Shown piece after piece: positions 36-62,039 of a stretch of 64,000 bases of DNA (its first letter is position 1; each line of letters starts with the position of its first letter). A program made the translations under genes and the position numbers. Origin of the DNA: Deroplatys truncata (Eukaryota; Arthropoda; Insecta; Mantodea; Mantidae); assembly GCA_030765065.1 (NCBI GenBank), contig CM060984.1, positions 97,755,488 to 97,819,487 of the forward strand, in the 5' to 3' direction. The notes beneath the pieces were generated by a model that did no database searches, was not told the origin of the DNA, and saw only the letters and a list, made by a program, of their open reading frames with translations.

Positions 36-879
36 ACCTGATGTTTACATTCATTCATATAGGTTTCTCTAGGTATTATCGTTTATTATTTCTAAAGCAT
101 TCTTAAAAACAACCTGTTTTTCTAACTGGTTAATAATAATCGAGATAAACATTTGCAGAAATAATTTCACTACACATTTCGTTGTAGACACAAAGGCGAT
201 ATAGGATGCCAAAGCGATAGTCATATTTTGGCCCTATGATGACTTTGAAGTTCAATACTCTTTTCAGACTTCACCAGAAACAGATGAAGAACACCACTTC
301 AAAAAAGTGTAAGGTATTGGAAAATCCAAAACAAAGAATTTCTGGCAAATGGTCTATGACAAAATTTTTGACGTAACTTGTATGTTTTAGCGGGGTCAAT
401 TTTTGTGGTTTTAGTCTGTCTTATGGTTTATCAGTTATTAAAAGTTATACAAAACGTATTCGAAATTAAGAAGATTTTTCAGGGTATTCATAGTAAAATT
501 TAAAATTGGATTTTATGTTCATGTAAATATCTTAAATATATCGTATTTTAATAAAAAAATGTAATTTTATGAAAAGCCAATTTGAGAAAATCAAAAATAA
601 GGAAACTTTCTCGGTGTAAAGGGTACCTTGAGGAGGGGGATTTCTTGAAAATCTTCGCGTTACATTTTTGGAGGATGCTGAACTTAAATATGAAATTTAG
701 TATGTATTCGACTTTTTCTTTTTTTTTTTTCATACACGCACACGCACACACATGGACCTTCTTCAATGTTTTCATTCAGAAGACTTAAAAACATGCATAT
801 TTGTTGAAATATCGTTATTGAATTTTTAGATGGAATACAATATTCCTCTACGTACCATAAGTTGGTGCTAGAGAAAGTA
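36..879 (-). mobile_element. HINE-like element, near full length (copy H1)
   Basis: Read on the minus strand it runs from the left motif AGAGAAAGT (about 870-879), through a diverged CA/GT tract at about 733-752 and the core, to the right-end motif at about 48-80. It is an old copy: the core matches the family consensus only patchily, the stem-loop is degraded and a T-run has expanded at 716-730. The short open frames on both strands here are by-products of the repeat. Confidence 0.7.
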
Positions 880-1570
880 ATAATCTTAGTAGGCAGTTAA
901 AGTTACGTGAAGGCAAGATATGACTTCTTTAATGTTGCCGTATCGTTTGTTGTAAGCATAAAGTATCGTTAATGTTGTGAATGAATTGGATTTCGTTGAA
1001 GGCGCTGTTCCATGATAGAACTTTGGAACATTTTACTGAAGAGCATCTGCGCCTGACATGCGGCTGCCCGCTTGGCTGCCGAGTCGGAAAAGTTGTCGGG
1101 TAGTCACGGGGGAACTATTCAATATCGTGTTGAATTGTGTTGCGCCCGTGTTCACACCAATCGCTTGTCAAATTCCATAGCTGCTATTCATTGAGGTGCC
1201 ACTTAATTTTTACTGCGCTTAAAACACCTGAAAGTCAATTTCCAATCTGCACCTGTTATTTATTAATTGAATTACGCGCATGCGTGCGGAGAATGGGTTT
1301 AATTTAACAGGCAATGGGGTTCGACCGCAACGTTTCCGCATTTTCCGAAAGAGCACATTGTTTTGCTACGCTGTGATTGGTTAATTTGTTCCGCGGTATA
1401 CAGCTAGTGCCAATACCACCTACTGTAATTATTGCCAACCACACAGTATTACAATGTTTATGTTAGCACTGCTGTTCAGCTCTGAAAGCAAACATGGAGT
1501 AAGCACCACGCTTTTATCTGGATAACTGATTAAACACACATTCTAATGTGCTTTTTATATGTATAACTAG
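880..1570. other. Gene-free stretch with a GC-richer, promoter-like patch
   Basis: No credible coding frame is visible. From about 1020 to 1420 the sequence is richer in GC and CpG than its surroundings and holds CCAAT-type motifs (accaatcg near 1157, gattggtta near 1375). This could be an old promoter or an unrecognised repeat. No TATA box or exon can be tied to it. Confidence 0.3.
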
Positions 1571-2510
1571 TACGAGGGCCATCAGAAAATTTCTTGGAGT
1601 GCAAAATGATACAAACGAGTTTTTAAGTTGTTATTTTTCAATAAGGCTCCCCCTTAACATCAATACACTTGGTCCAGCGATGGACGCCTTTTTCTCATCA
1701 CGGAGGTCAGATTCCTCCAGGACTGCAAAATACTCCTCAAATTGATAACTTAGGCTCTTAATCGGACGAAAATATCTTTTCACCAAAGCACTTTCTCAGT
1801 TTCGGGAAAAGGTGAAAGTCTGATGGAGATAAGTCAGAGGAATAAGGCGGGTGTGGCAGGAAATCATAAGCTACGCGTCAATTTTCGCCATTACAACAAG
1901 GCATATATGAGGACGAGCATTGCCTTGATATAATATGAGTTATTATTAACCAAATCTGGCCTTTTCTCGCCTATTTTGGTCTCCAATTAGTCCAGAAGGT
2001 TAGCATAATACTCTAAGGTGATAGATTTTCCAGGGGTGGGGGAGATAAGCAATTAGCAAGCACATTCTGGTATCCTGGAAATCGACACCATGATCTTCCT
2101 GGTCAATTTCAGACACATTGCGTTCTTTATTAATGGAGAATCTTGGTGTTTATAGTTTTTAGACTACTGTTTTGTATCAGGTGTGTAGTAGTGTCCCATA
2201 TTCCATCACTTGTTAAAAATCGGAGCATAACGTTAGTGAGATCTCTCTGAAAACGAGCTAAACTTTGTTAGATTCGCTTTTGAGCCAAATTCAGCAGTGC
2301 GGCACCCATCTTGGGGATAGTATTTCATTCTCAACTCCTCTTTAAATATATGACACGCACGTTCCCTTGAAAAGACTAGAGTTTCAGCAATCTGAACACA
2401 TTCGGCTATCGTGCAAAGCCACTTGATGATTTCTTTTGTCGTGGCAGATTTCAGTTTTCCAATGCGTGTGTCATCTTCCAAGCTCTCACGCATGTTTACA
2501 CTACGTGGTC
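1571..2510 (-). pseudogene. mariner (DD34D-type) transposase remnant
   Basis: Cut-and-paste transposase relic. The lower-coordinate end begins TACGAGGGCCATC, as mariner terminal repeats do. Reading upward on the minus strand, the C-terminal tail is recognisable (HRWTKCIDVKG), then LPHPPYSSDLSPSDFHLF with the third catalytic Asp, then NARPH with its preceding Asp replaced by Gly. At 2233-2493 an 86-codon frame matches the linker region (DDTRIGKLKSATTKEII; SRERACHIFKEEL). Frameshifts separate these blocks. The N-terminal DNA-binding half and the second terminal repeat are absent, so it is 5' truncated and inactive. Confidence 0.75.
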
Positions 2511-3911: not shown

Positions 3912-4680
3912 ACTTTCTCTACTGGGTACAGCAAATAGGGGAAGCATTGCATTCCACACAAAAAATCGATATCGAGATTTCACCTTAAATACATGTTTTA
4001 AACCCCCTGAATGCCAAAAAAGCATTTTTAGAAAAAGGTCCGCGCGGGCTTGTGTGTCTGAGAACAGCATAACTCAAAAACGAAAATTCGGATAAACACC
4101 AAACTTGATATTTAGGTTCAGTAGCTTTTAAATATGTGACACGATGATTTCCAAGAAAATCCCCCACCCCATAACTAACTACCCTTTACATAGAACATTT
4201 TTCGGAAATTTTTATTTTCTCAATAATAATTACCGATTTTGATTAAAATACTATATGTTTAAGATACTTTCATGGTAAATGAAATGTATATTATACATTT
4301 TCTGGAATATCCCCAAACGTCCTCTTCATTCTGAATGAAATATAGAACTCGTTAAAGCACACAATTTAGTAGTATACATTTTTTTGTCGAGTGAACCAAT
4401 TCCGAGATATTCCTTGTTATTTGTTTGATTTTCCAATACTTATACTTTTTCTCAAATGGGAATTTGTTTTTTCTTTCTTTATGTGGTGGACATACAAGAA
4501 GAAGTGAATGTGCTCCAGCTCTTAAAATATTTGACTCGCTTAAATCCTACAATACTCCCCTTGCACCTATAAGACAATTAGCAACACGATAGTTTCTGCA
4601 AATTTGCTTATCGATTAACGTGAAGTATAGGGAGAATAAGCGTTTGTAAAAGTAGTTTGTACAAGAGTAGAGAAAGTAAT
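3912..4680 (+). mobile_element. HINE-like element (copy H2)
   Basis: It begins ACTTTCTCTACT preceded by a T-run, continues through GCATTCCAC and the GAACAGCATAACTCAAAAAC core, and ends AGTAGAGAAAGT. The microsatellite has shrunk to a few GT units, and the terminal stem-loop is replaced by an A/T-rich stretch (ttattttTCATTTTTTCATTG). Confidence 0.8.
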
Positions 4681-8060: not shown

Positions 8061-8086
8061 TGTACATTTTAAGAAACTCTATCTTT

Positions 8087-8431: not shown

Positions 8432-9581
8432 TCTACTGTGATATATTCACTTGACTTTCTTTTCACTCTAACGTTTATTAGTAGAGCTGCAAATTATTCT
8501 TACTAAAGCCTATTTTTCGGCCTACTACATTTTATTCGAGATAAATCCTTGCAGAAATAGTTACAGTACACATTTCCTTATAGATACAAAGAGAATAGCG
8601 ATAGTCAAATGTCTAAGAACTGGACGCTATATGCTGGCCTTAAGATTTCATACTGTTTCCATGCAATCGCCAGAAACAACTGAATGTTGACAGGACTTTA
8701 AGAGAATGACCAAGAAATGAACAATTCCAACCATTAACAACAGATATCTCAGAAATGGCTGTCCTCCATGATCTAGAGGTAGCTCTATTTCCCAAGATCG
8801 CGGGTACAAACTCGGCGGAGGGCGATGTCTTTTTTTTTGGGCGTAAACATCCTTAGCATGGCTTCCTTCGGAAGGGAAATAAAGCCGGTGGTCCCGCGCC
8901 GTAGATTTACGGCACGCAAAATAACCTCAAGCCTGATAAAGAGGCCTCTGAGCAAAATTTCTGATCTTTCACGCCCAATATAGAATGGGACACTAAGGAC
9001 CATAGTAGTAAAGAGCGTCCATAAATAAAACTCAATTTAATTTAATTTCAGAAATGGCTTATGCCACAAAAAACTTATTTGAAATAAAATGTGTGTTTTA
9101 AAGAGTTCTAGATTTCTTGTGCGTGGTAAGTTTTCGTCTGTCGCTAAACGTTTACCAATTATAACGATTATGCAACACTCCTTCCGCATGAGGAAACTCC
9201 CGAAAATTCAATATACATTTTATTTGTCATGTAAATATCTTTAATATATGACATTTTATTCAAAACCGTTAAAGCCACTTTATAGAAAATAAAAAAATTC
9301 GAAAAATGTTCCATGTAAAGGGTAGTGGAGGTGGGGGATTTTCTTGGAAATCTTCCAATCGCATCCTTGGAAGATACTGAACTTAAATACAAAGTTTGGT
9401 ATTTATCCGACTTCGTTTTTGAGTTATGCTGTTCACAGACACACACGGACCTTTTCCTAAACATGATTTTTCTTATTCAGCGGTCTCAAAATACGTATTT
9501 CCGGTGAAATCTCGATATCGAATTGTTAGTTAGAATGCAACACCTTTTCTATCTACTATGTACCTACGTGGTAGAGAAAGT
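8432..9581 (-). mobile_element. HINE-like element, full length with nested SINE (copy H5)
   Basis: A minus-strand copy from a degraded right end (about 8432-8470) to the left motif GTAGAGAAAGT at 9571-9581. The internal microsatellite is reduced to GACACACACGG near 9438. The interruption at 8761-9047 is a SINE. Removing it leaves a continuous element of about 850 bp. Confidence 0.85.
8761..9047 (+). mobile_element. tRNA-derived SINE (family B) with perfect 12-bp target duplication
   Basis: The head carries TGATCTAGAGGTAGC (A-box-like) and GCGGGTACAAACTC (B-box-like), the internal promoter layout of RNA polymerase III. The body contains GGGCGTAAACATCC and CACGCCCAATATAGAATGGG. The tail is AT-rich (ataaataaaactcaatttaa). 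TCAGAAATGGCT occurs at 8749-8760 and again at 9048-9059, an exact duplication. Relatives lie at 23887-24145 (minus) and 38573-38777 (plus). The minus-strand 72-codon frame is a shadow. Confidence 0.85.
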
Positions 9582-11901: not shown

Positions 11902-11952
<51 letters not shown>

Positions 11953-14150: not shown

Positions 14151-15013
14151 CTTTAATAGGTACCTTGTTTATAAGGTATAGTTTGTCGGCGTGCAACCTA
14201 AAACCGTTAGGTTACTTTTTGCACATCTCTAAACTGTAATATGCAGATCACAGTGTAGATTTGTTGCAGTTTTTAATTTCTAACTCCAACTTTAAAAAGT
14301 CTCCACCAACATAAATTGTTTTCATTGCATTTCCTTCTTGCATTAGAATCTATTTACATTTGAATTTATACAAGAAGGAAGCTAGATCTGCAGTTTATTC
14401 TCCCCCATCCCGTGCTCATTGTGTAAACATTTTCGCATACATATTCATGTTTACAGATCTAGTAGTATTTATGAAGTTCCTTCGTCTCTCTTATGAATGA
14501 AAGTCCAATCCCACACAAAGAGCTTATTCAGTGCCAACATGTTATTGTTTCTCTAAAGTCAATTATTTATCTCTTAAATATTACTTATTTCATCCTGACC
14601 AATTTTCCCTCTTCGGAAGATATCGCGTTTAACTCCGGCTGCTGTGTGTATTTCCTTGCAGTTGCCAAACTCTTAAGGATATATTATTACCCTTAGAACG
14701 GCTTCGGTGCTCTTCGATCCCCTTCCATCCCTTTAGAAATTGGATTTGTCCATAATTGATAGCCTCACGCAGCCTCGAGTTCCCAGTTATGTTTTTTATG
14801 GCAGAACTTACATTTGAACAAACTGGGGTGGTAAAATGGCTCATATCCGCTGGTAGTACACTCAGGGCTATCAATGCTTCCAATGAGGGAAGAGAGAATA
14901 GTTTAAAAGTGTTAAAAAGGAATGCGTCACGGAAAGGCAAACCAGTTGTCATTTCGAAAAATATGGATTCCAGAGTATGGAACGGATATAACAAATAGAT
15001 AATCTTCGTGTTT
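14151..15013. other. No recognised gene; antisense open-frame pair at 14629-14998
   Basis: The longest frames are 121 codons (14629-14994 minus) and 80 codons (14756-14998 plus), overlapping on opposite strands. Neither matches a family I know. At most one could be real, and composition does not favour either. The rest is AT-rich DNA. Confidence 0.25.
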
Positions 15014-15795
15014 CTCTTTCTCTACCATGTACTTGCAGGAAGTAGAGGAAGTATTGTACTACGCCGAGAAATTTTATGTCAAGTTTTTACCGAAAATACA
15101 TGTTTTGAGGCCCTCTGAACCCCAGAAATCTTTTAAACAAAGGTCCTTATATCTGTGTCTGTGAACAGCATAGCTCAAAAACGAAATGCCGGATAAATAC
15201 CAAACTTTGTACACAAGTTCATTATCTTCCAAAGATGAGGCACGAAAATTAAAACAATATCCTCCAACCCCAATTAGCCTTTACGTGGAACATTTTTCAA
15301 AAATGGCTCAACGATTTTGATTAAAATGCAATATATTTAAGTTTGCATTACAAATAAAATATAAATCTTGATTTTTTTGAAAATAACTTGTTGAATACTC
15401 TTCATTCGAGAAAATTTTATATAATTTCCTATAACGGATAAACTATAAAATATAGACAAAAACTTACTGCCCCAAAATGCAGATCTCATTAAAACGCACA
15501 ATTCCTTTCAAATATTTTATTTTCTGTGGCATCAGACTTATACGGGATATCCGTTAGTATGGTTTGAAAGCTCTTTCTCATTTTTTTAAAGTGCTACCGC
15601 TATTCGGTAGTTTCTCGCCATGTCATGGAAGGAATATGGAATTTCAAGGTCAGCATATAAAGACATACAACTATCGATTCTGCTTGTTCTACTGCAAAAT
15701 GTGTAATGAAACTATTTCTGCAAAGGTTTAATTGAATTAACATGAATTAGGTAGAAAATTAATATTTCGTAGGAATAGTTTGTGAGACAGTATTT
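15014..15795 (+). mobile_element. HINE-like element (copy H6), weak right end
   Basis: Begins CTTTCTCTACCATGTACTTG, with the left palindrome variant and AGTAGAGGAAGTATTG. The microsatellite is nearly absent (ATCTGTGTCTGTGAACAG). The 3' half is of the subfamily with GATATCCGTTAG and CTGCAAAGGTTTAATTG. The terminal stem-loop cannot be recognised. Confidence 0.75.
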
Positions 15796-15984
15796 TATAT
15801 CACAACGCTGTGAATGCCAGAGTGATTGTAGTGTAAATTAACATTATTGTATGACAATGATTTTGAGATGTTTGTTAATTATAAGTATTGTTAGGAAATA
15901 AGTTTACACGGCCTCACTGAAACTGACAATAGGAGCGGGTAACAATGAGCGAGGGGGTGAGTTGTTTATCAATTAGAAGAGACA

Positions 15985-16170: not shown

Positions 16171-16183
16171 CAGAGACAAGTAT

Positions 16184-16983: not shown

Positions 16984-17633
16984 TACTTTCTCTACTACGT
17001 ATAGTAAGTAGGGGAAGTATTGCATTCCACCCAAAAATTCGATACCGAGATTTCAGCGGAAATACATGTTTTGAGACCTCCTGAATCCAAAAAAAGCATT
17101 TTTGTAAACATGTCCGTGTGTGTGTCTGTCTGTGTGTCTGTGTCTGTCTGTGTGTCTGTGTGTCTGTGAACAGCATAACTCCAAAACGAACAGTCGGATA
17201 AGCACCAAACTTGGTATTTAGGTTCAGTATCTTCCAGAGATGCGACACGAAGGTTTTCAAGAAAATTCCCCCACCCCAGACTACCCTTTACATAGAAGAT
17301 TTTTCGAAAATTTTAATTTTCTCAAAAATGGCTCTAACGATTTTGATGAAAATATCATATGTTTAAGATAAGGTCATGAGAAATGAAATGTATATCTCGA
17401 ATTTTCTGGGAATGTCTCCAAACGTATTCTTCATTGTGAACGACTTTTGCATAACTGGTAAACCATAAGAGATAGACAAAATTTTACTACACAAAAAATG
17501 TAGATCGCGTTAAAATACACAATTTATGTCATATACATCTCTTTTGTTGAGTGAACCGTTTTCGAGATATTGCTTGTTATTTCCTTAAATTTTCCAATAC
17601 TTATACTTTTTCTCAAATTCGTTATTCATTTTT
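16984..17633 (+). mobile_element. HINE unit lacking its 3' quarter (copy H8)
   Basis: Intact left end (ACTTTCTCTACTACGTATAG), a GTGTGTCTGTCT microsatellite at about 17110-17170, and core through CAAATTCGTTATTCATTTTT, where it stops. The next unit's ACTTTCTCTACT follows immediately. Unit 19292-19912 stops at exactly the same family position. Confidence 0.9.
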
Positions 17634-18529
17634 ACTTTCTCTACTACGTATAGTAAGTAGGGGAAGTATTGCATTCCACCCAAAAATTCGATACCGAGAT
17701 TTCACCGGAAATACACGTTTTGAGACCTCCTGAATCCAAAAAAAGCATTTTTAGAAACATGTCCGTGTGTGTGTCTGTGTGTGTGTCTGTGTGTCTGTGT
17801 GTGTGTGTGTCTGTGTGTGTGTGTGTCTGTGAACAGCATAACTCAAAAACGAACAATCGGATAAGCACCAAACTTGGTATTTAGGTTCAGTATCTTCCAG
17901 AGATGCGACACGAAGGTTTTCAAGAAAATCCCCCCAACCCAGACTACCCTTTACATGGAACATTTTTCGAAAATTTTAATTTTCTCAAAAACGGCTCTAA
18001 CGATTTTGATTAAAATATCATATGTTTAAGATATTGTCATGACAAGTAAAATGTATATCTCGAATTTTCTGGGAATGTCTCCAAAAGTGTTCTTCATTAT
18101 GAACGACTTTTTCATAACTGGTAAACCATAAGAGATAGACAAAATTTTACTACACAAAAAATGTAGATCGCGTTAAAATACACAAGTTATGTCATATACA
18201 TTTCTTTTGTTGAGTGAACCGTTTGCGAGATATTGCTTGTTATTCCCTTAAATTTTCCAATACTTATACTTTTTCTCAAATTCGTTATTCATTTTTTTAT
18301 GTTCTGGACATGCAAAGAGAATGGAATGCCCCACATAGCAACCAGCGATAAAATATTTGACTATCGCTTAAAAGCTACCATATTCCCCTTGCATCTACAA
18401 GAAAATTACAAATAAGATTGACATCTCGATATCTCGATTAATATGAAGCATATGGAGAATAGGCGTTTGTAAAAATAGATTGTACAAGAGTAGAGAAAGT
18501 CATGTGAGTGTAACACATCAGATTTTTTT
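17634..18529 (+). mobile_element. Complete HINE-like unit (copy H9)
   Basis: The best complete example. Left subterminal motif ACTTTCTCTACT at 17634, GT/GTCT microsatellite at 17763-17830, core, right motif AGTAGAGAAAGT at about 18489-18500, stem-loop ATGTGAGTGTAACACAT, CAG and a T-run. The left and right motifs are exact 12-nt inverted repeats of each other. No protein-coding capacity. Confidence 0.9.
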
Positions 18530-18761
18530 ATGTCCTGGACATGCAAAGAGAATGGAATGCGCCACATAGCAACCAGCGTTAAAATATTTGACTATCGCTT
18601 AAAAGCTACCATATTTCCCTTGCATCTACAAGAAAATTACCAATAAGATTGACATCTCGATATCTCGATTAACATGAAGCATATGGAGAATAGGCGTTTG
18701 TAAAAATAGTGTGTACAAGAGTAGAGAAAGTCATGTGAGTGTAACACATCAGATTTTTTTT
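18530..18761 (+). mobile_element. Tandem duplicate of a HINE 3' segment (copy H10)
   Basis: About 230 bp from ATGTCCTGGACATGCAAAG to the stem-loop and T-run, nearly identical to the last 230 bp of the unit just before it. A recent local duplication of the 3' end alone. Confidence 0.9.
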
Positions 18762-19291
18762 ACTTTCTCTACAACGTATAGGGGAATTATTGCATTCCAG
18801 CCAAAAACTCGATACCGAGATTTCACCGGAAATACCTGCTTTGAACACCCTGAATCCAGAATAATATCTTTTAGAAAAATTACGTGTGTGTCTATCTGTC
18901 CCTCTATCTGTGCGTCTGTGAACAGCATAACTCAAAAACGAAAAGTCGGATAAATATCAAACTTTGTTTTTTGGTTCGGTATCTATCATAGATGTGACAT
19001 GAAGATTCTCAAGAAAATCCCCACCTAAGACTACCCTTTACATGGAACAGTTTTCGAACATTTTTGTGTTCTCAAAAATGGCTGGAACGATTTTGATTAA
19101 AATATCATATATTTTTAAAATATTTTCATGAAAATAAAATGTATATTTTGAATTTTCTGGGAATGTCCCCAAAAGTCCTCTTCCTTCTGAATGTCTTTTG
19201 CATAACTGGTAAACCGTAAGAGATGGACAAAATTTTTCTGCACAAAAAAGGAAGAGCTCGTTAGAATCACAATTTATATCATATACTTTTT
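18762..19291 (+). mobile_element. HINE unit, 3' truncated (copy H11)
   Basis: Left end ACTTTCTCTACAACG, with the palindrome partly deleted and only a short TGTGTGTCTATCTGTCC tract. It ends at TTTATATCATATAC where unit H12 begins. More diverged than its neighbours, so of a different age. Confidence 0.85.
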
Positions 19292-19912
19292 ACTTTCTCT
19301 ACTACGTATAGTAAGTAGGGGAAGTATTGTATTCCACCCAAAATTTCGATACCGAGATTTTACCGGAAATACATGTTTTGAGACTCACTGAATCCAAAAA
19401 AAGCATTTTTGGAAACATGTCCGTGTGTGTGTCTGTCTGTGTGTCTGTGAACAGCATAACTCAAAAACGAAGAGTCGGATAAACACCAAACTTGGTATTT
19501 AGGTTCAGTATCTTTCAAAGATGCGACACGAAGGTTTTCAAGAAAATCCCCCCATCCCAGACTACCCTTTACATGGAACATTTTTCGAAAATTTTAATTT
19601 TCTCAAAAACGGCTCTAACGATTTTGATTAAAATATCATATGTTTAAGATATTGTCATGACAAATAAAATGTATATCTCGAATTTTCTGGGAATGTCTCC
19701 AAAAGTATTCTTCGTTATGAACGACTTTTTCATAACTGGTAAACCATAAGAGATAGACAAAAATTTACTACACGAAAAATGTAGATCGCGTTAAAATACA
19801 CAATTTATGTCATACATATCTTTTGTTAAGTGAACCGTTTGCGAGATATTGCTTGTTATTCCCTTAAATTTTCCAATACTTATACTTTTTCTCAAATTCG
19901 TTATTCATTTTT
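19292..19912 (+). mobile_element. HINE unit lacking its 3' quarter (copy H12)
   Basis: Starts ACTTTCTCTACTACG and ends at TTCGTTATTCATTTTT, directly abutting the next left end. The same internal breakpoint as H8, implying that H8/H9 and H12/H13 descend from one duplicated dimer. Confidence 0.9.
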
Positions 19913-20773
19913 ACTTTCTCTACTACGTATAGTAAGTAGGGGAAGTATTGTATTCCACCCAAAATTTCGATACCGAGATTTCACCGGAAATACATGTTTT
20001 GAAACCCCCTGAATCCAAAAAAAACATTTTTGGAAACATGTCCGTGTGTGTCTGTGTGTCTGTGTGTGTGTCTGTGAACAGCATAACTCAGAAACGAACA
20101 GACGGATAAACACCAAACTTGGTATTTAGGTTCAGTATCTTCCAAGGATGCGACATGAAGGTTTTCAAGAAAATCCCCTCACCCCAAAGTACCCTTTACA
20201 TGGAAGATTTTTCGAAAATTTTAATTTTCTCAAAAATGGCTCTAACGATTTTGATTAAAATATCATATGTTTAAGATATTTTTATGATAAATAAAATGTA
20301 TATCTTGAATTTCCTGGGAATGTCTCCAAAAGTATTCTTTATTGTGAACGACTTTTGCATAACTGGTAAACCATAAGAGATAGACAAAATTTTACTACAC
20401 AAAAAATGTAGATCGCGTTAAAATACACAATTTATGTCATATACATGTTTTTAGTTGAGTGAACCATTTTCGAGATATGCTTGTTATTTCCTTAAATTTT
20501 CCAATACTTATACTTTTTCTCAAATTCGTTATTCAATTTTTTATGTCCTGGATATGCAAACAGAATAGAATGCGCCACATAGCAACCAGCCCTTAAAAGA
20601 TTTGACTATCGCTTATAACCTACCATGTTCCCCTTGCATCTACAAGAAAATTAGCAATAAGATTGACATCTCGATATCTCGAGTAACATGAAGCATATGG
20701 AGAATAAACGTTTGTAAAAATAGTTTGTATAAGAGTAGAGAAAGTCATGTGAGTGTAACACATTAGATTTTTT
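19913..20773 (+). mobile_element. Complete HINE-like unit (copy H13)
   Basis: Left motif at 19913, microsatellite at 20042-20076, right motif AGTAGAGAAAGT at about 20734-20745, stem-loop ATGTGAGTGTAACACAT, then TAGATTTTTT. Closely similar to H9. Confidence 0.9.
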
Positions 20774-21097
20774 GTTGTGGAGTGAACCATTTCTGAGATA
20801 TTCCTTGTTTATTGCCTGAATTTTCCAATACTTTTACTTTTTCTCAAATGGGAATTCATTATTCATGTTTTTATGTTCTGGACATGCAAAGAGCACAGAA
20901 TGCTCCACAAAGCAACCAGCTCTTAATGGATTTGACTATGGCTTAAAGCCTACTACGAGTATTCCCCTTGCACCTACAACAAAATTATCAATAATATCGT
21001 TTATCTCATTTACATGAAGTGGGGAATAAGCGATTGTAAAAATAGTTTGTACAAGAGTTGAGAAAGTCATGTGAGTGTAACATATCAGTTTTGTTTT
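20774..21097 (+). mobile_element. HINE 3' half (copy H14)
   Basis: Starts inside the family at GTGGAGTGAACCATTTCTGAG and runs to GTTGAGAAAGTCATGTGAGTG, a stem-loop variant and CAGTTTTG. More diverged from the consensus than H9 or H13. Confidence 0.85.
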
Positions 21098-21348: not shown

Positions 21349-22210
21349 TAGTTTTTCTACAACGTATAGTAATTAGGGGAAGTATTGTATTCCATCCAAA
21401 AAATCGATATCGAGGTTTCACCGAAAATACATGTTTGGAGGCACCTGAATAAAAATATTTACAAAAAGGTCCGTGTGTGTGTCTGTGAACAGCATAATTC
21501 AAAAACGAAAAGACGGATAAATACCAAACTTGGTATTTAGGTTTATCACTTTCCATGGATGCGACACGAAGATTTCCAAGAAAATCCCTCACCCTAAACT
21601 ACCCTTTACATGGAACATTTCTCGAACTTTTTTATTTTTCTAAAAAATGGCTAAGGATTTTTATTAAAATACAATATACTAAACATATTTACATGACAAA
21701 TAAAATGTAAATCTTGAATTTTCTGGAAATAGCCTGTGAAGTCCACTTTATTTGGAAAAGTTTTTGCATAATCTTGTGCAACTGCTAAACGTTAAACGAT
21801 AGACGAAAACCTACTACACAAAAAATGCAGTTGTCTTTTAAACACACAATTTACTTCAAATAATTTTTTTTCCGGCACAAGCAATTTCTGAGACATCCCT
21901 TATTAAAAGTTCGAATTGCTCATTACTTGGTCATTCTTTAAAGTCTTTTTAGCATTCAGTTGTTTCTCGCGATTACATGGAAGCGGTATAGAGTTTTGAG
22001 GTCAACGTATAGCATCCAGTTCTTAAACATTTGACTATCGCTGTTCCCTTTGATCTAAAACAAAATGTGTAATGTAGCTAGTTCTGCAAATATTTATTTG
22101 GATTAAAATGTAGTAGATATAAAAATAGCTTTAGTAAAAATAGTTTGTCTACCAACTAATAAATTAGAGAGGGTAGAGAAAATCATTGAATGTAAAATAT
22201 CAGATTTTTT
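21349..22210 (+). mobile_element. HINE-like element (copy H16), second 3' subfamily
   Basis: Left end AGTTTTTCTACAACGTATAG, short GTGTGTGTCTGTGAACAG, and a 3' half of the subfamily with GCAATTTCTGAGACATCC and TTTGACTATCGCTGTTCCC. Ends GGTAGAGAAAATCATTGAATG, TATCAG and a T-run. It differs in its 3' half from H9 and H13, so the array contains two subfamilies. Confidence 0.8.
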
Positions 22211-24277: not shown

Positions 24278-24460
24278 ACTTTCTGTACTACGTATAGTAA
24301 GTAGGGGAAGTATTGTATTCCACCCAAAAATTCGATACCAAGATTTCAGCGGAAATACATGTTTTGAGATCCCCTGAATCTAAAAAAAGCATTTTTCCGT
24401 GTGTGTGCGTGTGTGTGTGTGTCTGAGTGTGTGTGTGTCTGAGTGTGTGTGTGTCTGTCT

Positions 24461-24517
<57 letters not shown>

Positions 24518-25223
24518 TGAGTGTCTGTGAACAGCATAACTCAGAAACGAACAGTCGGATAAACGCCAAACTTGGTGTTTAGGTTCAGTATCTTCCAGAG
24601 ATGCGACACGAAGATTTTCAAGAAAATCCCCCACCCCAGATTACCCTTTACATGGAACATTTTTCGAACATTTTAATTTTCTCAAAAATGGCTCTAACGA
24701 TTTTAATTAAAATATCATATGTTTAAGATATTCTCATGACAAATGAAATGTATATCTCGAATTTTCTGGGAATGTCTCCAAAAGTATTCTTCATCGTGAA
24801 CGACTTTTGCATAACTGGTAAACCATAAGAGACAGACAAAATTTTACTACACAAAAAATGTAGATCACGTTAAAATACACAGTTTGTCATATACATTTTT
24901 TGTTGTTGAGTGAACCATTTTCGAGATATTCCTTGTTATTTCCTTAAATTTTCCAATACTTATACTTTTTCTCAAATTCGTTGTTCATTTTTTTTGTCGT
25001 GGTAATGCAAAGAGAATGGAATACTCCACATAGCAACCAGCTCTTAAAATATTTGACTATCGCTTAAAGCCTACCAATTCCCCTTGCATCTACAAGAAAA
25101 TTAGCAATAAGAGTGACATCTCGATATCTCGATTAACATGAAGCATATGGAGAATAAGCGTTTGCAAAAATAGTTTGTACAACAGTAGAGAAAGTTATGT
25201 GAGTGTAACATATCAGATTTTTT
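24278..25223 (+). mobile_element. HINE-like element with greatly expanded microsatellite (copy H19)
   Basis: Left end ACTTTCTGTACTACGTATAG, core as consensus, right end AGTAGAGAAAGTTATGTGAG, stem-loop variant (ATGTG...CATAT, allowing one G-T pair), CAG and a T-run. The 133-bp GT/GTCT expansion is listed separately. Three long His/Thr-rich minus-strand frames are artefacts of it. Confidence 0.9.
24398..24530. repeat. Expanded (GT)n/(GTCTGAGT)n microsatellite inside a HINE
   Basis: About 133 bases of GT dinucleotides interspersed with GTCTGA units. It sits at the point where other copies carry only 10-70 bases, so it is an in-place expansion of the element's own repeat. Confidence 0.95.
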
Positions 25224-28609: not shown

Positions 28610-29455
28610 ACTTTCTCTACTACGTATAATAAGTAGGGGAAGTATTGCATTCCACCCAAAAATTCGATACAGGGATTTCACCGGAAATACATATTTTGAG
28701 ACCCCCTGAATCCAAGAAAAAGCATTTTTGGAAACATGTCCGTGTGTGTGTGTGTCTGTGAACAGCATAACTCAGAAACGAACAGTCGGATAAACATAAA
28801 CTTGGTATTTAGGTTCAGTATCTTCCAGAGATGCCACACGAAGGTTTTCAAGAACATTCCCCCACCCCAAACTACCCTTTACATGGAACATTTTACGAAA
28901 ATTTTTATTTTCTCAAAAATGGCTCGAACGATTTTGATTAAAATATATGTTTAAGATATTTTCATGACAAATCAAATGTATATCTCGAATTTTCTGGGAA
29001 TGTCTCCAAAAGCATTCTTCGTTGTGAACGACTTTTGCATAACTGGTAAACCATAAGAGATAGACAAAATTTTAGTACACAAAATATGTAGATTGCGTTA
29101 AAGTACACAATTTATGTCATATACATTGTTTTTGTTGAGTGAACCATTTTCGAGATATTGCTTGTTATTCCTTTAAATTTTCCAATACTTATACTTTTTC
29201 TCAAATTCGTTATTCATTTTTTTTTGTCCTGGCAAAGCAAGAGAATGCAATGCTCCACATAGCAACCAGCTCTTAAAAGATTTGACCATCGCTTAAAGCC
29301 TACCAATTCCCCTTGCATCTACAAGAAAATTAGCAATAAGATTAACATCTCGATATCTCGATTAACGTGAAGCATATGGAGAATAAGCGTTTGTAAAAAT
29401 AGTTTGTACAAAAGTAGACAAAGTCATGCGAGTGTAACACATCAGATTTTTTTTT
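28610..29455 (+). mobile_element. HINE-like element, complete (copy H20)
   Basis: ACTTTCTCTACTACG at 28610, short GTGTGTGTGTGTCTG at 28742, core, AGTAGACAAAGTCATGCGAG, stem-loop variant, CAG and a T-run. Little diverged from H9, so a fairly young copy. Confidence 0.9.
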
Positions 29456-30954: not shown

Positions 30955-31754
30955 AAAATCTGAGGTGTAACATTAACATGACTTTCTTTACCCTCTATCG
31001 CCTATCTATTTCATTTTACCGAGATAAACCTTTACGGAAATAGCTACATTACACAATTCATTATAGCTACAAAGGGTATAGCGATAGTCAAATGTTTTAG
31101 AACCAGATGCTATACGCTGGTCTTAGAATTCCATACTATTTCCATGACATCGCGAGAAACTGCTGAAGATCGACAGGACTTTAAAATAATGGCTAAGAAT
31201 TGAACAATTCGAACCATTGATAACGGATATCTCAGAAATGGCTGATGCCACAGAAACGTTATTTTAAATAAATTGTGTGTTTTAAATAGATCTACATTCT
31301 TGTGTAGCACGTTTTGGTCTGTCACTTAACGTTTACCAGTTATATAATATTATACAACATTATTTTCGAACGGAGAGGACTTCAAAAGCTACTTTCAGTA
31401 AATTCAAGCTATAGATTTTGTCACGTAAATATCATTAACATATAGTATTTTAATAAAAATCGTTGGAGTCAGTTTTTAAAAAATAAATATTTGAAAAATG
31501 TACCATATAAAGGATAGTTGGATGTAAGAGGATTTTCTTGAAAATCTTCGTGTCACATCTTTGGAATGTACTGAATCTGATACCAAGTTTGCTGTTTATC
31601 CGACTTTTCGTTTTTGAGCTATGCTGTTCACACACACACACACAGACACACACATGGCGATTTTTTCTATTTTGTTTTTCATTCAGGGTTCCGGAAAACA
31701 TGTATTTCCGGTGAAATCTCGATCTCTACCTACTAGGTATGTGGGAGAGAAAGT
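30955..31754 (-). mobile_element. HINE-like element, complete (copy H21)
   Basis: Minus strand: left motif GAGAGAAAGT at 31745-31754, microsatellite (GTGTGTCTGTGTGTG) at about 31627-31655, core, right motif and stem-loop variant at about 30960-30995 (AATCTGAGGTGTAACATTAAC on the plus strand). Confidence 0.85.
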
Positions 31755-36483: not shown

Positions 36484-37330
36484 ACTTTGTCTACCACGTG
36501 CATAGTAGATAGAGAAGGTATTGCATTCCGCAAAAAAAATTCCATACCGAGATTTCATTGTAAATGTATGTTTTGGGTCGCCCTGAAACCAAATAAAGCA
36601 TTTTTAGAGAAAGGCCCGTGTGTATGACTGTGAACAGCATAACTCAAAAACGAAAAGCTGGATAGTCAGCAAAACTTGGTATTTAGATTTAGTACCTTCC
36701 AAAGATGCGACATGGAGAATTTCAAGTAACCCTCACATGGAACTACCCTTTACATGGAACAATTTTCAAATTGTTTGATTTTCTGAAAAATAGCTCTATT
36801 TTGATTAAATTACTATTTATCAAAGATATTTATATGACAAATAAAATGTATATCTTGAATTTTCTGAGAATAGCATGTGAAGTCCTCTTCATTGGGAAGT
36901 AAATTTTGTATAATCTTGTATAACTGGTAAACGTTAGGCGATAGACGAAAACGTACTACACAAAAAATGTAGATCGCTTTAAAACACACAATTTATTTCA
37001 AATAACTTGTTTGTGGCATCAGCCATTTCTGAGATATCCGTTATTAATTGTTCGAATTGTTCAACACTTAAGCCATTTGTTTAAATTCCTGTCGATTTTC
37101 AGTTGTTTCTGGACTTGCATGAAAAGAGTATAGATTTCTAAAACATTTGACTATCGCTATTCGCTTTGTATCTATAACGAAATGTGTAATTCAGGTATAT
37201 CCGGAAAGGTTTATCTCGATTTAAATGAAGGAAATAGGAAAATAAGCTTTTGTAAGAATAATTTGTATACCCACTAATAAACGATAGAGAGTAGAGAAAG
37301 TTATGTGAATGTAATACATCAGAATTTTTT
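36484..37330 (+). mobile_element. HINE-like element, complete (copy H23), second 3' subfamily
   Basis: Left end ACTTTGTCTACCACGTGCAT with arms CTACC/GGTATTG of the palindrome. The microsatellite is reduced to GTGTGTATGACTGTG. The 3' half carries CAGCCATTTCTGAGATATCC and TTTGACTATCGCTATTC. Ends AGTAGAGAAAGTTATGTGAATG with a paired ATGT...ACAT stem, CAGA and a T-run. Confidence 0.88.
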
Positions 37331-49688: not shown

Positions 49689-50690
49689 GCGTTACATTGA
49701 CATGACTTTTCTACTCACTCTTCCATAAACTATTCTTACCAAAGTTTATTATTCTGGCTACTTCTTGTAGCTATAGAAAATCTTTCAGTTCACATTTACA
49801 CATTCCTTTGCGGGATACAGCAGGTAATCAATAGTCAAGTCAGATGTTTAAAGAGTGTGCCGCTATAGGATGGTTTTGAAACTGCATCTTACCTTATCTT
49901 CCTTAAGGGAAGAGAGGAGATGTGCACCTATGCCCCACGAGGGGGCTCCCCGAGAGGAAGGATGTGGGGAGAGGAGATAACGGGGGACCGGATCCAGGAG
50001 CGATGGTACAGCAATAACAGGGTCCTTTATTTTCCAGAAGCAGACACCCCGGCAGACCGGGGACCTGCCCTACACAGAGGGTGTTCAACGTCCTTGAAAT
50101 TCCATACTCTTTGCATGACTATGAGAGAAAAGAAAAGGAAAAATGACTTCCCATTTGCTTAAGTATTTAAAAATTAAAACCAATAGAATACGTATCTAGG
50201 AAATGGTTAACTCAAAAAGGAACAAATTGTGTGCTGCTTTAACAAGATCTACATTTGTTTGTGGTAAGATTTTGTCTATCTCTTAGGTTTACCAATTATG
50301 CGAAACTCATTCAAAATGAAGAGGAATTCAGAGGCTATTCCCAGAATATTCCAGATATATGTTTCATTTGTCGTGAAAATGTCTTAAACTTGTGGTATTT
50401 TAACTCGTTAGAGCCATTCTAGAGAAAATGAAAATTTTCTAAAAAATGTCATCTTAAGGTTAGTTTGGGGCGGGGGGACTTTATGAGAATCTTCGAGTCG
50501 CACCTTGGATGATACTAAGCTTAGTACTTAAAAACCGATTTTTTGTTTTTGAGTTATACATTCGCAAACACAGACATGCACACCCGGACCTTTTTCTAAA
50601 AATGCGTTTCTGTTTTGCTTTTTTTTGTAGGGGATTGGATTCAGGGAGTCTCAAATCTTTATTTCCGGAGGTGAAGTGTCGGAATTTTAA
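49689..50690 (-). mobile_element. HINE-like element split by SINE-like sequence (copy H28)
   Basis: Minus-strand copy: right-end motif GACTTTTCTACTC (about 49702 in plus orientation), core up to about 49887, SINE-C piece, then core again from GAAATTCCATACTC (50095) to the left third (ATTTCCGGAGGTGAAG at about 50661). The final left motif is lost. The microsatellite is decayed (GCAAACACAGACATGCACACC). Confidence 0.75.
49888..50093 (-). mobile_element. SINE family C 3' fragment
   Basis: On the minus strand, CTTCCTCTCGGGGAGCCCCC followed by GTGGGGCATAGGTGCAC matches the 3' part of 7381-7851 with a few changes. The rest is GC-rich and unrelated to the flanking HINE. The tRNA-like head is absent. 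Confidence 0.65.
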
Positions 50691-53579: not shown

Positions 53580-53603
53580 TTAAATTACAGTTTGTCACTT
53601 TTT

Positions 53604-54454
53604 ACTTTCTCTACCACGTATATTAAGTAAGAAAAGTATTGCATTCCAACCAAAAATTCCATACCAAGATTTCACCGGAAATACATGTTTTGAGGCCTCC
53701 TGAATCCAAAAAAAGTATTTTTGAAAACATGTCCGTGTGTTTGTCTGTGTATCTGTCTGTGAACAGCATAACTCAGAAACGAACAGTCGGATAAACACCA
53801 AACTTGGTATTTAGGTTCAGTATCTTCCAGAGATGCGACACAAAGGTTTTCAAGAAAATCCCCCACCCCAGATTACCCTTTACATGGAACATTTTTTTAA
53901 AACTTTAATTTTCTTAAAACGGCTCTAAAGATTTTGATTAAAATATCATATATTTAAGATATTTTCATGGAAAATAAAATGTATAACTTGAATTTTCTGG
54001 GAATGTCTCCAAAAGTATTCTTCATTGTGAACGACTTTTGCATAACTGGTAAACCATAAGAGATAGACAAAATTTTACTACATAAAAATGTAGATCGCGT
54101 TAAAATACATAATTTATATTATATACATTTATTTGTTGAGTGAACCATTTTTGAGATATTGCTCGTTATTCCCTTAAATTTTCCTATACTTATACTTTTT
54201 CTCAAATGGGAATTCGTTATTAATTTTTTTGGGCCTGGTAATGCAAAGAGAATAGAATACTCCACATAGCAACCAGCTCTTAAAATATTTGACTATTGCT
54301 TAAAGCCTAGCAATTCCCCTTGCATCTACAAGAAAGTTAGCAATAAGCTTAACATCTCGATATTTCGATTAACATGAAACATATGGAGAATAAGCGTTTG
54401 TAAAAATTGTTTGTACAAGAGTAGAGAAAGTCATGTGAGTGTAACACAAAAAAT
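53604..54454 (+). mobile_element. HINE-like element, complete (copy H30)
   Basis: ACTTTCTCTACCACG at 53604, short GTGTGTTTGTCTGTGTATCTG, core, AGTAGAGAAAGTCATGTGAG at about 54423, with a stem-loop whose last base pairs are replaced by A residues. It begins 14 bp after the SINE's target duplication. Confidence 0.9.
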
Positions 54455-54710
54455 TTTGTATCGAGGTGGAGAAATGTAATAAACTTTAAAACAGAATATG
54501 CAAACAATCTTTCACAGAAAAAAAACATTTAATTTGTATGCATTTACTGTGCGTGCTATCTACTGAGACATGCTGGAAGTGAGACGGAGCTAGGTATACT
54601 TACATCTATGCAACGGCGCTGAAAGTTTTTCTAACAACTTGGATTTTCGTTAAAAATAGGCATTATCTGGAAAGGTCGCATCAGGGGAGGATTGGATTCC
54701 TTAATAATCA

Positions 54711-55651: not shown

Positions 55652-55665
55652 ATTTGAAGAAGGTT

Positions 55666-59519: not shown

Positions 59520-60386
59520 ACTTCCTCTACCACGTACATAATAAGAAGAGAAAGTAATGTATTCCACCCAAAAATTCGATATTGAGATTTCAACATAAAT
59601 GCGTGTTTTGAGGCCCCCTGAATCCAAATAACGCATTTTTATAAAAATGCTAGTGTGTGTTTTGTGTCTGTAACAGCATAACTCAAAAAGGAAAAGTCTG
59701 ATAAATGCCAAACTTGATATTTAGTTTCAGTATCTTCCATGTATGCGACACAAAGATTTTCAAGAAAAGCACCCCACACAAACTACCCTTTATATGGAAC
59801 ATATTTCGAAATTTTTTATTTTCTAAAAAATGACTAATGATTTTGATTCAAATACATTATATTAAAGATATTTACATGAAAAATAAGATGTATATCTTGA
59901 ATTTTATGGGAATAACCTAGGAAGTCCTCTTCATTCGGAAGGAATTTTGCATAACCTTGCATAAGTAGTAAACGTTAAGGGAGAGACGAAGAGAGAGATC
60001 AACACAAAAAAGTATAGCTCTTTAAAACGCATGCTTTATTTCAAATAAGTTTTTATGGCATAAGCCATTTCTGAGGTATCCGTTATTAATGGTTCGAATT
60101 GTTCATTACTTAGTCATTCTTTTAAAGCCACATTCAGTTGTTTCCCGCAATTACATAGAAATAGTATGGGATTTTAAGGCCAGCATGTATTTTCCAGTTC
60201 TTAAACATTTGACTATAGCTGTTCTCTTTGTATCTATAATGAAAAATGTAATGTAGTTATTTCTGCAAAGGTTTATTTGGATTAAAATATAGTAGAAGGA
60301 AAAATAAGTTTTTGTAAAAATAGTTCGTATACTCACTAATAAAGATAGAGAGTAGAGAAAGTCATATGAAGGTATCACATTTTTCT
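59520..60386 (+). mobile_element. HINE-like element, complete (copy H31), second 3' subfamily
   Basis: Left ACTTCCTCTACCACGTACAT, GT tract TGTGTGTTTTGTGTCTG, core, GCCATTTCTGAGGTATCC and TTTGACTATAGCTGTTC in the 3' half. Right end AGTAGAGAAAGTCATATGAAGG, then a weak stem and T-run. Confidence 0.85.
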
Positions 60387-60448
60387 AATCTGATTCCACC
60401 GTCTAACCTACGAAAGAAGAATTAACAGATATAAAGGACAGTCTTTAT

Positions 60449-60680
60449 ACTTTCTGTGCTACTTTAAATAGAGGAAGTATTGCATTGCACCCAAAATATT
60501 CCATATCGAGGTGTTACACTGGAAATACACCTTTTGAGGCACCTGAAAAAAAAGGAAAAGCATTTTTAGAAAAAGGTCCGCATGTGTGTGAAGAGGATAA
60601 CTAAAATCGAAAAACCGATTTAATATTAAACCAGGATGTCTACTGATACTGGATATCCTGGAAATGTACTTGCATTTTTT
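60449..60680 (+). mobile_element. HINE left part (copy H32)
   Basis: ACTTTCTGTGCTACTTTAAATAG, GAGGAAGTATTGCATTGC, ACTGGAAATACACC, AAAGCATTTTTAGAAAAAGG and a decayed core. Ends in unrelated AT-rich DNA. Confidence 0.7.
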
Positions 60681-61394
60681 TACATACTGCATATACTGGA
60701 ATTAATGATTGCGTACTGAAAATATGGATAAATATCCACATAAGATTGATTTATTTCAGATTAAATTTTAGGTGATATGTTCTTGAAAAATCTTGTTAAT
60801 CAAATATATATTTTTGAGTAATTTAATGTTTGGTATGATATCTGTTTTCCATAATCTTTTATCTAAAATAATAACTCAAACATTTAGATAATCTTTTACT
60901 TCTAACATCTTATAAAAGCTATAAAAAATTTCTAGAATTATGAATATTGTTGCAGGGGAGAGGTGGAAGGAGGTTAATGCTAATATTTCATTCCCGTTTT
61001 TGTGAATATCTGTAAACATTTTCATCCATTATTATCAAAAGCATAGTAATTTTATGAAATTACTGTTCTAGGAGGTAAAGAGGGAACTCGGCATAAAAAT
61101 TTTCTAGAACATTGCACAATAATTTCCTAAAGAGTGCAGAGAGTACATTTAATTACATCGCACTCCAGATTTAAAAAGCCACCTGTGCAAGATGGGACAT
61201 AACAACTAATTACAAACACAACTTCGTATTGTGGCTGTGGAAACAAATGCAGTCATTAAAGATGTTAACCTAGCCACAATACGCATTTGAATATTGCTGC
61301 ATTTTTACTTCAATATGATTCGATGCAATACTGGAAGTTTGTCAAAACTTATACTGGAAATACTGGAATTTTAAACTTTCAAGGCAGAAGATAC
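60681..61394. other. AT-rich DNA with a short hairpin
   Basis: CGTATTGTGGCT (61225-61236) and AGCCACAATACG (61272-61283) are perfect 12-nt inverted repeats with a 35-nt spacer. Nothing else was noticed. Confidence 0.5.
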
Positions 61395-62039
61395 CTTGTA
61401 AACTTGGTAGTTAAGTTTAGCATCTTCCAAGGATGCGACACGAATATTAAAAAAGAAATCTCCTACCCCAAGCTATCCTTTACAAGAAAACATGTTCGTT
61501 ATTTTTTATTTTCTCAAAATCCCTCTTTGGTTATAATACCACATGTATCAGATATTTGCATGACAAAAGAAATATACTTCTTGAATTTTCGGTGAATAGC
61601 CTGTCAAGTTATCTTCATTCTTAATTTCTTTTTTATAATTTCAAACCTAAGAGATACATAAAACCTTACTGCACAAACAAATGTAGATATCGTTAAAACA
61701 CATAATTTATGTCAAATAACATTTTTGTGGAGTTAAACATTTACGAGATGTTCCCTGTTATTGTTTTGAATTTTCAAATACCTACACTTTTCGCAAATGG
61801 GAAGTCATTCGATTTTTGTTTTGTTTTGTTTTCGTAGTCATGCTAAGAGCATGAAATTTCAAAACCATCACCAATCGACACGCTCCTACTATCGTTTTAC
61901 CTAGTATATCGTACAACGTAATGTATACATTTAAATTGAAATCTAGATTAATAAGAAGTAGTTAGAATAAGTTTTGTAACAGCAAGGTGTAGAAGAATGA
62001 GTAGAGAAAGAAATGAGAATCCAAAGTATAAGATTTTTT
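61395..62039 (+). mobile_element. HINE-like element, left end missing (copy H33)
   Basis: Starts in the core (CTTGTAAACTTGGTAGTTAAG, GCATCTTCCAAGGATGCGAC) and runs to GAGTAGAGAAAGAAATGAG with a degraded stem-loop and T-run. The left end and microsatellite are absent. Confidence 0.75.

What the first reader, a model, noticed from the sequence alone, without database searches (positions are those of the whole stretch)
36..62039. A HINE/INE-1-like Helentron-associated repeat family makes up a large share of the window
About 33 pieces share one plan: left subterminal motif ACTTTCTCTACT overlapping an imperfect palindrome, an internal GT/GTCT microsatellite preceded by ACATGTCCGTGTG, a core (GAACAGCATAACTC...), a right inverted motif AGTAGAGAAAGT, a stem-loop ATGTGAGTGTAACACAT, then CAG and a T-run. 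The order and even the CATGTCCGT-microsatellite-GAAC wording recall Drosophila INE-1/DINE-1 (known: subterminal inverted repeats, GTCY microsatellite, 3' stem-loop, T-rich target). The sequence features are seen directly. Assignment to Helentrons is inference. No Rep/helicase protein is present in the window.
Basis: partly seen in the sequence, partly recalled or inferred. Interest (0 to 1): 0.75.

Follow-up and report, generated by a model that had tools for sequence, protein, structure and literature searches.

The report
Mantis Helentron family nesting within itself
The repeats are short passenger copies of a rolling-circle jumping gene, present in very large numbers in a praying mantis genome; intact driver elements with the same ends are found elsewhere in that genome, and some of them have landed inside older passenger copies.

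Summary
Confirmed. An ~861-bp non-coding element with the described plan, plus fragments and relatives, covers 24% of the window. The Helentron reading, offered as inference, is now well supported. The genome matches Deroplatys truncata (C4 length equals its published scaffold N50). Ten fetched ~10-kb elements there have open frames of 2,182-2,543 codons with Helentron-type Rep (GSPHEH), PIF1 helicase, endonuclease and VTD-protease motifs. They share the repeat's 5' end, about 690 bp, and its 3' subTIR-hairpin. Exact 21-nt 5' starts: 169,330 genome-wide.

Additions: 16,993 of those starts directly follow the left half of a HINE's internal T7 run; autonomous copies sit in that run in 8 of 31 junctions. 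Nests give composites with two 5' ends that move as one unit: 8 of 10 autonomous copies, and window 19292-20773.

Against: insertion into HINEs overall is no more than their T-run content predicts; only that one run looks enriched. HINE and driver fail the same-subfamily rule. A known kind at unusual scale.

The parts
16985..17633 (+). left part (consensus 1-629) of outer HINE copy A
   Evidence: blastn to consensus, 94.3%
17634..18528 (+). full-length HINE copy B, inserted in the internal T-run (consensus 625-631) of copy A
   Evidence: joined flanks align across the junction to consensus 510-752, 96%
18522..18759 (+). tail (consensus 624-861) of outer copy A
   Evidence: 98.3%
18762..19290 (+). 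left part of copy C, whose 5' end abuts the 3' T-tail of copy A (head to tail)
   Evidence: 5' motif ACTTTCTCTACA at 18762; consensus 25-536 from 18779; junction read
19292..19912 (+). first 5' arm (consensus 1-629) of a composite HINE unit inserted in copy C near consensus 535
   Evidence: joined flanks of 19292-20767 align across the junction to consensus 417-652, 84%
19913..20773 (+). second 5' end and complete body of the same composite unit; its 3' end is the 3' end of the unit
   Evidence: consensus 1-861, 95.7%; what follows is consensus 534-861, the tail of C, not 624-861 of the arm
20769..21095 (+). tail (consensus 534-861) of copy C
   Evidence: 80.8%
28610..29452 (+). full-length HINE copy, left flank TTATT, right flank T-run; no repeated flank
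24278..25223 (+). near full-length HINE copy with expanded GT/GTCT microsatellite
53604..54457 (+). full-length HINE copy
   Evidence: 90.9% to consensus
3912..4680 (+). HINE copy with internal deletion (consensus 440-491 not matched)
36484..37329 (+). diverged HINE relative with both ends
   Evidence: 72.9%, then 83.9% and 90.5% towards the 3' end
59520..60329 (+). diverged HINE relative; a 3' subTIR follows at 60351
   Evidence: 73.2% and 76.8%; motif
61400..62039 (+). diverged HINE fragments
   Evidence: 73.9% and 69.5%
21352..22210 (+). diverged HINE copy in three matched stretches
   Evidence: 72.0%, 75.9%, 87.2%
163..862 (-). old HINE copy, consensus 13-752
   Evidence: 64.2%
9045..9559 (-). 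HINE left part, consensus 17-564
   Evidence: 74.9%
31080..31726 (-). HINE part, consensus 57-701
   Evidence: 70.8%
50099..50523 (-). HINE middle part, consensus 215-660
   Evidence: 73.9%

Best explanation
The pieces are HINEs: non-coding derivatives of a Helentron (endonuclease-bearing rolling-circle transposon) in the genome of the mantis Deroplatys truncata, mobilised in trans by intact ~10-kb Helentrons there. Inferred mechanism: the HUH-Rep nicks at the 5' end (T-rich terminus plus ACTTTCTCTACT palindrome), the helicase peels off one strand until the 3' subTIR-hairpin-T signal, and the AP-type endonuclease opens a T-run where the strand is joined without target duplication. HINEs carry their own T-runs (consensus 603-607, 625-631, 3' tail 856-861), so new copies, autonomous ones included, can land in old copies. 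A later round can start at the outer 5' end and stop at the inner 3' end, which makes a mobile composite with two 5' ends. Shown: shared ends, open frames with the expected motifs, flanks that rejoin into a HINE, the same composite at different sites. Inferred: the chemistry, that this lineage drives this HINE, and that it is still active.
For: Autonomous copies: ten pieces with frames of 2,182-2,543 codons open; 5' ends as in the HINE; positions 1-694 of window copy 28610 (1-692 in copy I) shared at 82-87%; over 6 kb nine copies are 99.0-99.9% identical to each other and the tenth (A) 97.9-98.1% to the rest. Domains, copies B and J: PF14214, PF20209, PF05970 and PF04843 over cut-off; PF14529 E 3.4e-5, 24.1 bits, below its cut-off of 27.4. 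Motifs: VTD, Rep, Walker and helicase VI patterns in 10 of 10; the four endonuclease patterns complete in 8 of 10. Relatives: of the 120 listed homologues (192 found) 100 read GSPH, 2 GTPH, 18 no readable motif, none GLPH. Empty sites: joined flanks align to the HINE across the junction for 6 of 10 Helentrons and 2 of 7 window units. Composite: the extra 5' arm is 97.8-99.8% identical in 8 copies with different flanks, while the outer target HINEs of C, E, F and J differ from each other by 2.2-6.4% in their left parts and 1.9-7.5% in their tails. Host: C4 = 248,405,437 bases = published scaffold N50 of D. truncata; total 4,289,915,091 against 4,290,792,545.
Against: By the published rule (at least 80% over the last 60 bp) HINE and this Helentron are different subfamilies: 61.7-63.3% in ten copies. 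About 100 nt of the HINE before its 3' subTIR (roughly consensus 725-820) had no match in the fetched Helentrons, so its immediate parent was not found. Five Ts precede the 5' motif in 35 of 40 ends; in pure T sites a TTTTT duplication cannot be told from Ts owned by the element. Two units with TTATT on the left (28610; autonomous copy I) show no repeat on the right. The 3' hairpin is not unusually stable. No expression or movement data.
Confidence: 0.93

Rival explanations
1. A MITE-like family moved by a cut-and-paste (DDE) transposase; the resemblance to HINEs is structural coincidence.
For: Subterminal inverted repeats; a dispersed inverted-repeat family with HINE pieces in it exists.
Against: Elements with Rep, helicase and endonuclease share the ends and about 690 bp of the 5' region; no fixed TSD. 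The inverted-repeat family holds HINE pieces inside and shows no ORF over 120 aa in the 11.9 kb read, but its ends were not reached and no genome-wide DDE search was made.
Confidence: 0.03
2. Canonical Helitron derivatives (ends TC...CTRR, as recalled; insertion between A and T).
For: Canonical Helitron Reps (L type) also lie in the genome.
Against: The elements found with these ends are all of the S type, 10 of 10. The 12 canonical-type loci fetched carry stops in the match in 10 of 12; their own ends were not looked for. The HINE ends in a T-run after a hairpin plus CAG, not CTRR.
Confidence: 0.03
3. Nesting at the internal T-run is only chance use of T-runs: HINEs are T-run-rich, so any T-targeting element would nest in them this often.
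For: 42-50% of T-runs of at least 5 to 8 in the window lie in HINEs, against 11 of 31 autonomous insertions inside HINEs: no excess.
Against: The 625-631 run alone takes 8 of 31 autonomous insertions, against 1.9% of T>=5 runs (P 7e-8), 4.9% of T>=6 runs (P 9e-5) or 8.8% of T>=7 runs (P 0.004) in the window. The null comes from one window that has about 1.75 times the genome's density of the 12-mer (14 per 64 kb; about 8).
Confidence: 0.4

Closest known systems
HINE-Mo / Helentron-Mo of the mite Metaseiulus occidentalis (Thomas, Vadnagara and Pritham 2014, PMC4067079; abstract, Results parts 1-2 of 3 and Discussion read)
   Same: 12-15 bp subTIRs, 3' palindrome, T-run targets without TSD, variable terminal Ts, longer Rep/Helicase/Endonuclease partner with S-type Rep.
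   Different: No RPA ORF seen (no separate second ORF over 250 codons on the + strand inside the element; minus strand not scanned); VTD protease at the N terminus; 5' end doubled in 8 of 10; HINE and partner share 62-63% over the last 60 bp, not 80%.
DINE-1/INE-1 of Drosophila (same paper)
   Same: subTIRs, 5' inverted repeat overlapping the subTIR, 3' stem-loop, T-rich targets, clusters.
VTD-bearing Helentrons (PMC9741609; passages read)
   Same: Herpes-tegument-type deubiquitinase domain with an Asp-x-His motif in one ORF with Rep, helicase and AP endonuclease.
   Different: That paper assayed zebrafish elements; the mantis one is untested.
Composite FoHeli Helitrons of Fusarium oxysporum (PMC5148889; passages and Fig. 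7 legend read)
   Same: Self-insertion, then start at the outer 5' terminus and stop at the inner 3' terminus, giving two 5' termini.
   Different: Fungal Helitrons with short (<200 bp) doubled 5' ends; here an arm of about 620-660 bp in an animal Helentron, and the composite is the commonest form among the ten fetched copies.

Membership tests
Helentron/HINE (Thomas 2014) | subTIRs of 12-15 bp, palindromic or paired with a 5' inverted repeat | tested here: met
   ACTTTCTCTACT / AGTAGAGAAAGT; 5' hairpin z -2.43
Helentron/HINE (Thomas 2014) | 5' subTIR about 2-4 nt from the 5' terminus; 3' subTIR about 38-60 bp from the 3' terminus | tested here: inconclusive
   Ts on the left blur the 5' terminus; at 3' the subTIR starts 34 nt and ends 22 nt before the T-tail, shorter than the mite values unless Ts are counted
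Helentron/HINE (Thomas 2014) | short palindrome near the 3' end | tested here: met
   ATGTG-loop-CACAT followed by CAG in most copies; present, but not exceptionally stable
Helentron/HINE (Thomas 2014) | insertion in T-rich sites without target-site modification | tested here: met
   8 of 17 units could be tested against a HINE empty site and align across the junction, 6 at 91-97% and 2 (D, 19292) at 82-84%; a duplication of Ts alone cannot be excluded
Helentron/HINE (Thomas 2014) | partner encoding Rep + PIF1-type helicase + C-terminal endonuclease, Rep with S before PH | tested here: met
   the endonuclease Pfam score is under its cut-off, its motifs are complete in 8 of 10
Helentron/HINE (Thomas 2014) | same family: at least 11 identical bp of subTIR | tested here: met
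   11 identical nt at 3', 12 at 5'
[quoted passage not shown]
   61.7-63.3% in 10 of 10
Canonical Helitron | 3' CTRR-type end (recalled), insertion between A and T | tested here: not met
   3' ends read CAG(A) plus T-run; insertion in T-runs
Drosophila DINE-1 | sequence similarity to INE-1 models | not testable with these tools
   no Dfam/Repbase or Drosophila genome on hand

The most novel reading that the evidence does not exclude
The Helentron machinery prefers one T-run inside its own derivatives, so the family is its own main landing pad: each HINE carries a reusable safe site, the nests make composites with two starts, and one such composite is the commonest autonomous form among the copies examined, in a genome where the family may hold about a seventh of the DNA (one-window estimate).
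Probability: 0.35. Interest if true: 0.65.

Novelty: new member of a known kind. Interest (0 to 1): 0.5.

Why it matters
It offers a candidate identity for the Helitron bursts reported in this mantis without a family description in the passages I read (PMC12908712), and it ties a very large HINE family to intact, near-identical driver elements in the same genome. The nests supply many built-in empty sites. Composites with two starts and one stop show which ends the machinery uses, so the rolling-circle start/stop model can be tested by counting rather than by argument.

Tried and rejected
Rejected readings: a DDE-driven MITE (a Rep-Hel partner was found; no fixed TSD) and a canonical Helitron (ends and Rep type differ). 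I first read the frequent nesting as self-targeting; the T-run count showed that nesting in HINEs as a whole is not above what their T-runs predict, so only the 625-631 run is kept as possibly preferred. I considered that C, E, F and J could be copies of one triple composite; their outer HINEs are too different. A structure prediction was not run. A search of papers for the 12-mer gave four unrelated papers; searches for stick-insect and for nested or self-inserting Helitrons gave background only.

Dropped or corrected rows: the script chose the outer HINE end for L037; its Helentron junction is the one (HINE tail from consensus 624). L055 and L058 (a HINE 5' end directly after the Helentron T-tail) were called HINE by the script and are left out of my 11 of 31, because a HINE may have landed in the Helentron's tail. 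L049 looks like a decayed 625 site and is counted as other. L044 and L056 gave no 3' end. Five of these flanks are only 26-49 nt long (L041, L042, L050, L051, L055), which lowers sensitivity. The 20 copies were picked from the PF14214 list for a near-complete Rep match, without sight of their flanks; other rows of that list were not fetched, and itself scored only 150 of 291 candidates. In one search, 8 of the 58 5' ends are the inner ends of the composite and are not independent; G at 3524 was called 'other' there but lies in a HINE. L088 was called 'other' although its last letters match the 625 site (it is among the places).
Full report
WHAT IS THERE. The window is G000:C10:97755488-97819487 of a 4.29-Gb assembly. 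An 861-nt majority consensus from 17 full copies finds 47 stretches covering 15,341 bp (24.0%) of the window; the same consensus read backwards gives 41 matches, all with its positions 680-764, the microsatellite part and its neighbourhood. The forward stretches range from 98.3% to 61.2% identity, so the family has a long history. Genome-wide, the 12-mer ACTTTCTCTACT occurs 537,760 times on the two strands against 2,012 for its letters read backwards, and the 21-nt 5' start occurs 169,330 times against 0. The window holds 14 exact 12-mers; the genome average is about 8 per 64 kb, so scaling 24% by 8/14 gives roughly 14% of the genome. That is an estimate from one window, not a measurement.

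HOST. The publication of five mantis genomes (PMC12908712; section 5 and passages read) gives for Deroplatys truncata a total of 4,290,792,545 bp, 15+X chromosomes and a scaffold N50 of 248,405,437 bp. Contig C4 here is 248,405,437 bases long, and C16 is 707,006,351, which would be the X. I take the host to be D. truncata. [quoted passage not shown] a full-text search for Deroplatys with Helitron found only this paper, and I saw no family description in the passages read. Its supplementary tables were not open to me.

THE DRIVER. A search for the Helitron Rep domain (PF14214) reports 152 matches, with 150 of 291 candidates scored, so a lower bound. They fall in two kinds. Of the 12 best-scoring loci 10 carry stops in the match; the Rep motif could be read in 10 of the 12, always with L before PH or LH (canonical Helitron type). 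A second set is nearly identical, lies in frames of up to 2,543 codons, and reads QMRGSPHEH in 10 of 10 fetched copies, the S being the published Helentron diagnostic (PMC4067079). In copies B and J, Pfam finds in order a herpes-tegument-type protease (PF04843), DUF6570, Helitron_like_N, PIF1 helicase and an endonuclease (PF14529 at 24.1 bits, under the 27.4 cut-off). The endonuclease patterns are complete in 8 of 10 (missing: A, two; E, one); the other tested motifs are in 10 of 10. Such protease domains (VTDs) in Helentrons are published and active in zebrafish elements (PMC9741609, passages). The closest proteins are at 58% identity (Cacopsylla) and 50-53% in spider, snail and hoverfly; of the 120 listed, 100 have GSPH, 2 GTPH, 18 no readable motif, none GLPH. 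The frame carries a 21-residue repeat of variable number (8-21 by a loose motif count).

SHARED ENDS. Each of the ten Helentrons starts with ACTTTCTCTACT and ends with TGTAGAGAAAGT-TATGTGAATGTAACACAT-CAGA-T-run. Positions 1-694 of the window copy 28610 align to its 5' region at 82-87%, and two further HINE-like pieces, one inverted, follow. The last 34 nt before the T-run match the HINE consensus at 31. By the published rules they are one family (at least 11 identical subTIR bases) but not one subfamily (61.7-63.3% over the last 60 bp; 80% needed). So the driver type is found; the exact parent of this HINE is not.

EMPTY SITES. For 10 Helentrons and 7 window units I removed the element in a script, trimmed the right T-run and aligned the joined flanks to the HINE consensus. 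Six Helentrons and two window units sit inside a HINE, and in all eight one alignment runs across the junction: C, E, F, J, G and window 17634 at 91-97%, D and window 19292 at 82-84% to older target copies. Lengths on the two sides differ by 2-13 nt, which includes Ts, untrimmed bases and, in D and G, the microsatellite. The left junction reads TTTTT|ACTTTC in 35 of 40 ends sampled on C1; a minority read TTATT|ACTTTC, and for two of these (window 28610, autonomous I) the right side begins with a T-run, so TTATT is not repeated. A five-T duplication cannot be excluded in pure T sites, but no fixed-length duplication is seen across copies.

NESTS AND COMPOSITES. The stretch 16985-21095 is a stack of four elements: B (17634) inside the internal T7 run of A; C (18762) at the 3' T-tail of A; and inside C, near consensus 535, one unit 19292-20773 that consists of a HINE left part (1-629) followed by a complete HINE. 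That unit has two 5' ends and one 3' end and lies as one piece between the two halves of C. The autonomous element shows the same: 8 of 10 copies (not A and I) carry an extra HINE left part (about 620-660 bp) before their own 5' end. This arm is 97.8-99.8% identical among the 8 copies although their outer flanks differ, so it travels with the element; four of the eight (C, E, F, J) lie in the T7 run of four different HINEs (left parts 93.6-97.8% alike, tails 92.5-98.1%). Self-insertion followed by start at the outer 5' end and stop at the inner 3' end is a published model from Fusarium (PMC5148889, passages); here it has produced the commonest form among the copies I fetched.

IS IT SELF-TARGETING? 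Of 169,330 exact 5' ends, 16,993 (10.0%) have the exact left half of the HINE internal T-run in front of them. This is a lower bound for sites (exact flank asked) but not a count of independent insertions: composites repeat the junction, and 12 of the places listed for C1 form three inverted groups of four, two of which are shown to belong to the palindrome family described below. For autonomous elements, 33 copies were examined and 31 gave a 3' junction; 8 of 31 lie in the T7 run (C, E, F, J, L037, L039, L042, L051) and 3 more elsewhere in HINEs (D, G, L053). In the window 42-50% of T-runs lie in HINEs, so 11 of 31 is no excess. The T7 run itself makes up 1.9% of runs of 5 or more, 4.9% of 6 or more and 8.8% of 7 or more, giving P of 7e-8, 9e-5 and 0.004 for 8 of 31. 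I read this as suggestive of a preference for this run, with the null resting on one window. Of the first 40 HINE 5' ends listed on C1, 13 are inside HINEs by the script: 7 at consensus 607, 3 at 861, 2 at 629, 1 at 558; 4 of the 7 at 607, perhaps 6, come in inverted groups. In the window and the ten Helentron pieces, 28 of 58 5' ends lie in HINEs by the script, 4 of 12 in the window; 8 of the 28, and window 19913, are inner ends of composites.

HOW IT WORKS (inferred). The HUH-Rep opens the 5' end, the helicase displaces a strand to the 3' hairpin signal, and the AP-type endonuclease, as Thomas and co-workers proposed, opens T-runs. HINEs keep both signals and are carried in trans. Because they also carry T-runs, the family builds on itself, in stacks and in head-to-tail rows: three in a row lie at 1-2513 of the piece of copy H, the first cut by its edge, and two at 14275-16058 in copy C. 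The bodies of nine autonomous copies are 99.0-99.9% identical, which speaks for recent movement; present activity is not shown.

VERDICT. It is a known kind of element. What is unusual is its scale, the intact drivers of the same family in one genome, and the nest-and-composite behaviour.

Noticed in passing
L003 (G000:C1:15000-24999); regularly spaced 12-mer hits from C1:20511 to 119361: 12-mer hits spaced about 3,408-3,410 bp near the start of C1; in the two units read (L003) each holds one HINE, 3,409 bp apart: a HINE apparently captured in a tandem array.
   Followed up: partly
L099-L101 (G000:C1:26122300-26134200); second copy L102/L103 (C1:13832700-13834600 and 13842300-13844200): An 11.9-kb stretch that is 97% identical to its own reverse complement over an 8.1-kb alignment, made of HINE pieces and 76-bp tandem repeats, no ORF over 120 aa; two 1.9-kb pieces of a second copy are 98% alike: a dispersed foldback-like family with HINE passengers. 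Its ends were not reached.
   Followed up: partly
L018/L019, L034/L035: The Helentron frame begins with a herpes-tegument-type deubiquitinase domain (Cys and Asp-x-His motifs kept in 10 of 10) and carries a 21-residue charged repeat of variable number.
   Followed up: partly
L004-L012, L014: Canonical Helitron Reps (RGLPH or RGLLH), mostly with stops, in the same genome as the intact Helentrons.
   Followed up: no
L087, L090, L091, L095: Four HINEs on C1 share one non-HINE left flank (ending GTCGATGTTTTT), so another repeat also carries HINEs along.
   Followed up: no
window 16183-16325: A 36/72-bp tandem repeat that no HINE match overlaps.
   Followed up: no
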